From Himantopus leucocephalus (taxonomy: Eukaryota > Chordata > Aves > Charadriiformes > Recurvirostridae), in the NCBI GenBank assembly GCA_003993805.1, contig RSEF01000005.1, forward strand, positions 18,506,969 through 18,570,968: a stretch of DNA of 64,000 nt. The letters are read 5' to 3'. Shown here piece by piece: positions 14,088-14,126 of the stretch. The stretch's first letter is position 1. Each line of letters begins with the position of its first letter. A model generated the notes under the pieces. That model was given only the letters and a program-made list of their open reading frames with translations. It did no database searches and was not told the DNA's origin. The position numbers and the translations under genes are program-made.

Positions 14088-14126
14088 GTACCTTTCACAT
14101 TTATGGATATTGAGACATGTATATAG
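14088..14126 (+). CDS. SLC1A2: SLC1A2 alternative C-terminus (GLT-1b tail) by intron-10 retention
   Basis: Reading straight on through the exon 10 donor gives 12 codons and a TAG stop at 14124-14126: VPFTFMDIETCI. Mammalian GLT-1b (also called GLT1v) replaces the usual last 22 residues with 11 residues ending DIETCI, whose C-terminus is a PDZ ligand reported to bind PICK1 and PSD-95. The bird tail differs from the mammalian tail at only two positions (Thr for Pro, Met for Leu) although it lies in otherwise unconserved intron. This isoform therefore appears to be preserved. Its use in this species is inferred, not seen. Confidence 0.85.
   Translation, partial: VPFTFMDIETCI

What the first reader, a model, noticed from the sequence alone, without database searches (positions are those of the whole stretch)
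14088..14126. Conserved GLT-1b PDZ-ligand tail encoded at the start of SLC1A2 intron 10
Read-through of the exon 10 donor gives VPFTFMDIETCI and a stop. Mammalian GLT-1b ends in the same DIETCI, with only Pro/Thr and Leu/Met differing nearby. The donor (GTACCT) is weak from +4 to +6, which would favour retention. Intron DNA would not keep a 12-codon frame, its stop and a C-terminal PDZ ligand across birds and mammals by chance, so the isoform choice between the GLT-1a and GLT-1b tails seems to predate their split.
Basis: partly seen in the sequence, partly recalled or inferred. Interest (0 to 1): 0.78.

Follow-up and report, generated by a model that had tools for sequence, protein, structure and literature searches.

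The report
Bird GLT-1b glutamate transporter tail
Just past an exon of a bird brain glutamate transporter gene lies a short, very old alternative ending that should let the transporter grip scaffold proteins; it is the bird version of a form already known from mammals.

Summary
SLC1A2 exon 10 ends at 14087; reading on through the donor gives V-PFTFMDIETCI and a TAG stop (14088-14126). This is the bird counterpart of the known GLT-1b/EAAT2b C-terminus (human HFPFMDIETCI, rat PFPFLDIETCI). It is not chance: 9 of 11 residues match human, P about 1e-12 with the stop. Of 94 relatives that read past the junction, 93 keep the tail and 92 end exactly with it. Annotated proteins with it include a peafowl, turtles, snakes, mammals, caecilians and ray-finned fish, so both tails predate bony vertebrates, not just the bird-mammal split. 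Two points are weaker: the donor scores close to those of exons 8 and 9, and a composite terminal exon is as likely as intron retention. Bird GLT-1b appears already reported: a 2002 paper naming chicken retina (title only) and a peafowl record. The fresher reading is that GLT-1b is the ancestral terminal exon and GLT-1a the later addition: bird SLC1A3 and SLC1A6-like genes, and about half of the non-vertebrate-like relatives seen, end in similar PDZ-ligand patterns in the same exon.

The parts
13856..14087 (+). SLC1A2 exon 10, shared by the three C-terminal forms seen here; ends in phase 0 at AAG
   Evidence: residues 1-80 of the exon plus read-through match human EAAT2 (7xr4_A, E 5.3e-43)
14088..14126 (+). 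Read-through GLT-1b tail VPFTFMDIETCI and TAG stop; C-terminal T-C-I fits the class I PDZ-ligand pattern (pattern recalled)
   Evidence: matches human/rat tails; conservation
14088..14093 (+). Exon 10 splice donor GTACCT, used for GLT-1a, read as Val-Pro in GLT-1b
14127..15255 (+). Putative 3' UTR of the GLT-1b composite terminal exon (extent inferred, not shown)
   Evidence: AATAAA at 15231 followed by a T-rich stretch; AATAAA count in the intron (2) does not exceed chance (3.1 expected)
16598..16668 (+). Alternative cassette exon encoding FIQHGEFQLCL* (stop 16631-16633), identical to the C-terminus of a predicted stork isoform (P0159); possibly GLT-1c-like
   Evidence: donor AAG|GTAAGT 8.46 bits
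17581..17655 (+). Exon 11 coding part: GLT-1a tail VTLATNGKSADFSVVEEEPWKREN and TAA
2251..2442 (+). SLC1A2 exon 8 (start approximate)
7746..7882 (+). SLC1A2 exon 9 (start approximate)

Best explanation
The segment is the coding end of the bird GLT-1b (EAAT2b) isoform of SLC1A2. When the exon 10 donor is not used and the transcript ends inside intron 10, exon 10 becomes a composite terminal exon whose last 12 codons are VPFTFMDIETCI. Shown here: the sequence, the intact frame, and conservation of the tail in the pattern of a class I PDZ ligand. Known from mammals (read as passages of reviews): GLT-1b transports at a similar rate to GLT-1a, but its tail binds PICK1, PSD-95 and DLG1, which affect its leak current, clustering and surface retention. 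Inferred: that this bird makes the isoform, by poly(A) site choice in the intron, and that the same PDZ proteins bind it. The tail is probably the ancestral terminus of the gene, and exon 11 (GLT-1a) the later addition.
For: Sequence and frame. Mammalian tails and their PDZ partners (passages of PMC5608761 and PMC8076567). Of 94 relatives reading past the junction, 93 hold the tail and 92 end with it; 90 have 12 residues, and in these Thr at -2 is 90 of 90, Glu at -3 89 of 90, last residue Ile/Met 87 of 90; 89 of 94 end in a strict class I pattern. Two unnamed rows, P0225 (rodent-like) and P0270 (fish-like), have exons 8, 9 and 10 joined and then the b tail, on contigs of 2,022 and 926 bases, which looks like cDNA of the isoform. 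21 of the 120 proteins listed end in the tail (20 ETCI, one ETGI), the first being Pavo cristatus, identical to this bird over the last 40 residues. Chance 1.4e-12.
Against: No transcript evidence from this species. Intronic AATAAA signals are no more frequent than chance, so the 3' end is not located. Of 33 bird rows, 18 end in the GLT-1a tail, 5 in the cassette-type tail, 7 stop at the junction, 2 are other and only 1 (peafowl) has the b tail; that record appears to be an automatic annotation. No DNA of relatives, so no dN/dS.
Confidence: 0.92

Rival explanations
1. Same tail, but made by retention of the whole intron 10 with the poly(A) site beyond exon 11, not by intronic polyadenylation. 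The stop at 14126 would then have no obligatory downstream exon junction that I can see, so the mRNA could escape NMD (rule recalled).
For: Intron 10 is short (14088-17580) and is the last coding intron; intronic AATAAA is not enriched (2 found, 3.1 expected).
Against: A passage of PMC5608761 names 3' RACE among the methods by which the isoform was found (passage cut at its start), and a candidate AATAAA with a downstream T-rich stretch lies 1.1 kb after the stop. Neither is strong.
Confidence: 0.3
2. The conservation reflects a splicing or RNA-level element at the donor, and the peptide is incidental.
For: The segment sits on a donor that must be skipped in some transcripts; residue 2, which spans +4 to +6, is only Gln, Pro, His, Ser, Leu or Tyr in 94 of 94 relatives, so +5 is almost never G.
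Against: The most constrained positions are Asp, Glu and Thr near the C-terminus with a stop right behind, while the codons next to the donor vary. The RNA does not fold better than shuffles (z 0.46) and matches no Rfam family at gathering score. Annotated proteins contain the tail.
Confidence: 0.04
3. Intron sequence that resembles the mammalian tail by chance, or a decayed relic in birds.
For: Only 1 of 33 bird rows listed carries the tail.
Against: Chance about 1e-12; identical 12-residue tail in peafowl, tortoises, tuatara, snakes and Komodo dragon.
Confidence: 0.01

Closest known systems
Mammalian GLT-1b / EAAT2b (also GLT1v), SLC1A2
   Same: Same gene, same point of departure after ECK, same length of tail, DIETCI and stop identical
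   Different: Two of 11 residues (Pro for human His, Thr for Pro); expression in this bird not shown
GLT-1a (SLC1A2 exon 11 tail)
   Same: Shares exon 10 and what lies upstream; present in the window at 17581-17655
   Different: Reviews describe no PDZ ligand in it; needs the exon 10 donor to be used
SLC1A3 (EAAT1) and SLC1A6-like terminal exons in the same genome
   Same: The exon begins at the same place before DR-x-RT and ends in SETKM or SETAL and a stop in that exon
   Different: The stretch between is unrelated; no downstream alternative exon was looked for

Membership tests
GLT-1b / EAAT2b isoform of SLC1A2 | Lies directly after SLC1A2 exon 10 in frame | tested here: met
GLT-1b / EAAT2b isoform of SLC1A2 | 11-residue alternative C-terminus ending DIETCI and stop | tested here: met
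   PFTFMDIETCI* against Table 1 of PMC5608761
GLT-1b / EAAT2b isoform of SLC1A2 | Class I PDZ-ligand pattern S/T-x-hydrophobic at the C-terminus (definition recalled) | tested here: met
   T-C-I; 89 of 94 relatives
GLT-1b / EAAT2b isoform of SLC1A2 | A polyadenylated mRNA that keeps the start of intron 10 | not testable with these tools
   No transcript data from this bird; candidate AATAAA at 15231 only
GLT-1b / EAAT2b isoform of SLC1A2 | Binding to PICK1, PSD-95, DLG1 | not testable with these tools
   Known for mammals from passages
GLT-1c-type cassette (16598-16668) | In-frame exon between exons 10 and 11 with its own stop | tested here: met
   FIQHGEFQLCL* identical to predicted Ciconia boyciana isoform P0159
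GLT-1c-type cassette (16598-16668) | Sequence match to the published mammalian GLT-1c tail | tested here: inconclusive
   I did not see the published sequence (a search for one candidate ending found no paper). The opossum and lungfish alternative tails (P0214, P0217) did not match the cassette by tblastn; by eye the lungfish tail shares H-x-E-x-Q-x-C-L

The most novel reading that the evidence does not exclude
GLT-1b is not an alternative made by retaining an intron but the original end of the gene. The ancestral EAAT terminal exon ended in a class I PDZ ligand. In an early vertebrate a 5' splice site came into use within that exon at a Val codon, and a new exon 11 was added downstream; this made GLT-1a, the form that dominates in mammals and lacks the scaffold grip. 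The old ending has been kept under protein-level selection for over 400 million years (date recalled) as a minor isoform.
Probability: 0.55. Interest if true: 0.45.

Novelty: already known. Interest (0 to 1): 0.27.

Why it matters
GLT-1 is the main transporter that clears synaptic glutamate, and the b tail decides whether it can be anchored by PDZ scaffolds. That both tails go back at least to the bony-vertebrate ancestor suggests that scaffold-anchored and free GLT-1 pools are an old feature of vertebrate brains, and makes birds, reptiles and fish usable models for it. The polarity (b ancestral, a derived) would turn the question around: not why GLT-1b gained a PDZ ligand, but why the main isoform lost it.

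Tried and rejected
An own-genome search with a pattern guessed from memory for the tail codons found nothing because the guess did not match the window's codons; it says nothing about the finding. Scans of genome contigs and viral contigs for carry-over animal DNA found 48 and 5 pattern matches, none a relative, so no DNA-level dN/dS was possible. A bacterial promoter/terminator scan (0 sites; not suited to this genome), RNA folding around the donor (z 0.46) and Rfam (0 matches in 12000-19000) gave nothing. The weak-donor argument was tested and not upheld in its strong form. Intronic poly(A) signals were counted and are not enriched. That P0090 is from a cartilaginous fish was tested by similarity of its exon-10 part: 57% to Scyliorhinus P0091 (78.2 bits) against 52% to Amia (75.1 bits) and to the mammal-like P0004 (71.6 bits); too close to call, so shark GLT-1b is left as possible only.

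Literature: nine searches, of which I saw the top 6 to 25 listed papers each, often of far more hits; none of the listed titles or abstract starts dealt with the read-through tail in birds or with the polarity. Passages were read in six papers: PMC10867268, PMC5608761, PMC2873418 (and its section 6), PMC3872404, PMC3627989 (nothing on bird GLT-1 variants in the passages shown) and PMC8076567. The 2002 paper naming chicken is not held.

Rows dropped before the counts: from the 99, P0011 and P0026 (spliced GLT-1a), P0081 (cut short) and P0091-P0100 (GLT-1a shark row and non-vertebrate-like rows); from the 54 new rows, all but eight (P0268, which one search's pattern had counted, was dropped as not SLC1A2). 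Val at t1 and the Lys before it are fixed by my selection pattern. Only 120 of 141 and 120 of 840 (itself from the 7,997 candidates scored) hits were listed and seen. The query alignment (A1) held eight rows, six of them ending in a class I pattern, which favours such rows among the hits.

Full report
What is there. The window lies in an unnamed 1.1-Gb genome that is bird-like by its best named match (Pavo cristatus, identical over the last 40 residues). Exon 10 (13856-14087) plus its read-through matches solved human EAAT2 at E 5.3e-43 over residues 1-80. The donor GT is at 14088. Reading on gives VPFTFMDIETCI and TAG, ending at 14126.

What it is. Table 1 of PMC5608761 (passages read) gives the EAAT2b tail as HFPFMDIETCI in human and PFPFLDIETCI in rat. 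The bird has PFTFMDIETCI, 9 of 11 identical to each. With the base composition of intron 10, such a match with a stop at codon 12 has a chance of about 1.4e-12 (human) or 6.8e-12 (rat). [quoted passage not shown] a passage cut at its start names 3' RACE among the methods. PMC8076567 (passages) puts EAAT2a at about 90%, EAAT2b at about 6% and EAAT2c at about 1% of EAAT2 protein.

Conservation. A search with the exon-10-plus-tail frame returned 99 proteins. With eight there are 94 that read past the junction without the GLT-1a or cassette tail. In 53 the residue before D-R is Arg or Ser, as in an unspliced frame; 37 begin inside exon 10 or lack that motif; four have exon 9 joined. Two of these four (P0013, P0244) are named fish annotations; the other two, P0225 and P0270, sit on unnamed contigs of 2,022 and 926 bases with exons 8, 9 and 10 joined and then the b tail, and look like cDNA of the isoform. 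The tail is present in 93 of 94 and is the exact C-terminus in 92. Ninety have exactly 12 residues after the Lys; in these Thr at -2 is 90 of 90, Glu at -3 89 of 90, the last residue Ile or Met 87 of 90. In all, 89 of 94 end in a strict class I pattern; the five others are P0018, P0021 and P0031 (ETST), P0009 (stop lost, seven more residues) and P0222 (tail lost). Many rows look like ray-finned fish, so they are not independent. Among the 90, entropy is lowest at Thr -2, Glu -3 and Asp -5 (0 to 0.40 bits) and highest at t2, t4 and t6 (1.87, 1.53, 1.69); the last position varies, but only between Ile, Met and, in three, Thr (1.09). That is what selection on a C-terminal ligand predicts. The last ten residues of exon 10 range over 0 to 1.80 bits, so the tail is about as conserved as certain coding sequence beside it.

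Named species. A second search, with the last 40 residues scored, listed 120 of 141 hits; 21 end in the b tail, 20 as ETCI and one as ETGI. They come from Pavo, Gopherus, Chelonoidis, Chelydra, Sphenodon, Naja, Pseudonaja, Crotalus, Varanus, Lynx, human, rat, Apodemus, the caecilians Rhinatrema and Microcaecilia, Amia and Thalassophryne. Of 33 bird rows, 18 end in the GLT-1a tail, 5 in the cassette-type tail, 7 stop at the junction, 2 are other and 1 has the b tail. GLT-1a tails also occur in turtles, mammals, salamanders and lungfish, in cyprinid fish (P0026, P0233) and in the shark Scyliorhinus (P0091). Both tails in ray-finned fish and in tetrapods put their origin at or before the ancestor of bony vertebrates.

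The donor. GTACCT is off-consensus at +4 and +5 but not at +6. With recalled frequencies the exon 10 donor scores 1.05 bits, exon 8 1.40 and exon 9 1.47; the U1 duplex energy is -5.6 against -4.9 and -4.9 kcal/mol. The cassette donor scores 8.46. So the exon 10 donor is mediocre, like its neighbours. One detail is worth keeping: codon 2 of the tail covers +4 to +6, and the residue there is Gln, Pro, His, Ser, Leu or Tyr in all 94 (37, 30, 22, 2, 2, 1). Apart from AGY serine none of these codons puts G at +5, so this donor appears to have lacked the usual +5 G in the vertebrates sampled. That is an inference from protein letters.

How it is made. Two routes fit: an intronic poly(A) site (composite terminal exon) or retention of intron 10. 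AATAAA occurs at 15231 and 17419 in the intron, 2 in all against 3.1 expected, and ATTAAA 4 times against 3.5 expected, so the signal at 15231 is only a candidate. I favour the composite exon, mainly by analogy with the mammalian isoform.

Where it came from. The Pfam search found seven other SLC1-type loci with the C-terminal exons, which I read, and matches to the N-terminal part only at C214:20120238-20121307, which I did not read. All seven have an AG plus one base before D-R, as at SLC1A2, so the same intron position. Five of seven end within the exon that follows in a way I take for the true end: SLC1A3 (SETKM), a second SLC1A3-like copy (SETKM), an SLC1A6-like gene (GSETAL), an SLC1A4-like gene (KESVL) and SLC1A1 (TSQF); for two (L034, L036) the frame runs on or stops early and I infer a further splice. 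The names SLC1A1 and SLC1A3 rest on tails, the others on recall. Among 53 relatives without the vertebrate exon-10 linker (9, 44), the residue before D-R is Arg or Ser in 49, as an intron ending in AG at that phase would give; 27 of 53 end in a class I pattern, 26 of them in [ED][TS]-x-hydrophobic. Two of these (P0235, P0258) have exon 9 joined and end NSETQI and NPETEI. The simplest reading is still that the b tail continues the old terminal exon and exon 11 was added later.

Is it new. [quoted passage not shown] not held) suggests protein-level evidence in a bird; I have not seen its result. Nothing in the listings of the nine paper searches stated the polarity.

Noticed in passing
window 16598-16668 (+): A third C-terminal option: cassette exon FIQHGEFQLCL* between exons 10 and 11, identical to the C-terminus of a predicted stork isoform; its stop is 35 nt before its own donor, which by the usual rule (recalled) should spare it from NMD. 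The last three residues L-C-L are not class I, unlike the opossum QSWV and lungfish QSCL endings of what may be the same exon.
   Followed up: partly
L033 and L037 (G000:C165:11540500-11550470 and 11568050-11578000): Two SLC1A3-like terminal regions in opposite orientation about 20 kb apart, 82-89% identical in five aligned pieces of about 7 kb in all, both ending SETKM: looks like an inverted duplication within the SLC1A3 locus, too diverged for an assembly duplicate.
   Followed up: partly
window 13998-14000: Gly codon GGC in TQS-G-YDD; Gly is found in none of 194 other proteins in which the site could be read (Ile 117, Tyr 64, Val 10, others 3). Either a private change or a sequence error.
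   Followed up: partly
P0018, P0021, P0031, P0009, P0222: Fish-like rows in which the PDZ ligand is altered (ETST), extended past a lost stop, or gone: possible natural losses of GLT-1b scaffold binding.
   Followed up: no
G000:C214:20120238-20121307 (-): Matches to the N-terminal part of the SLC1 family on the same contig, 1.5 Mb beyond the window, with no matching C-terminal exons listed nearby.
   Followed up: no
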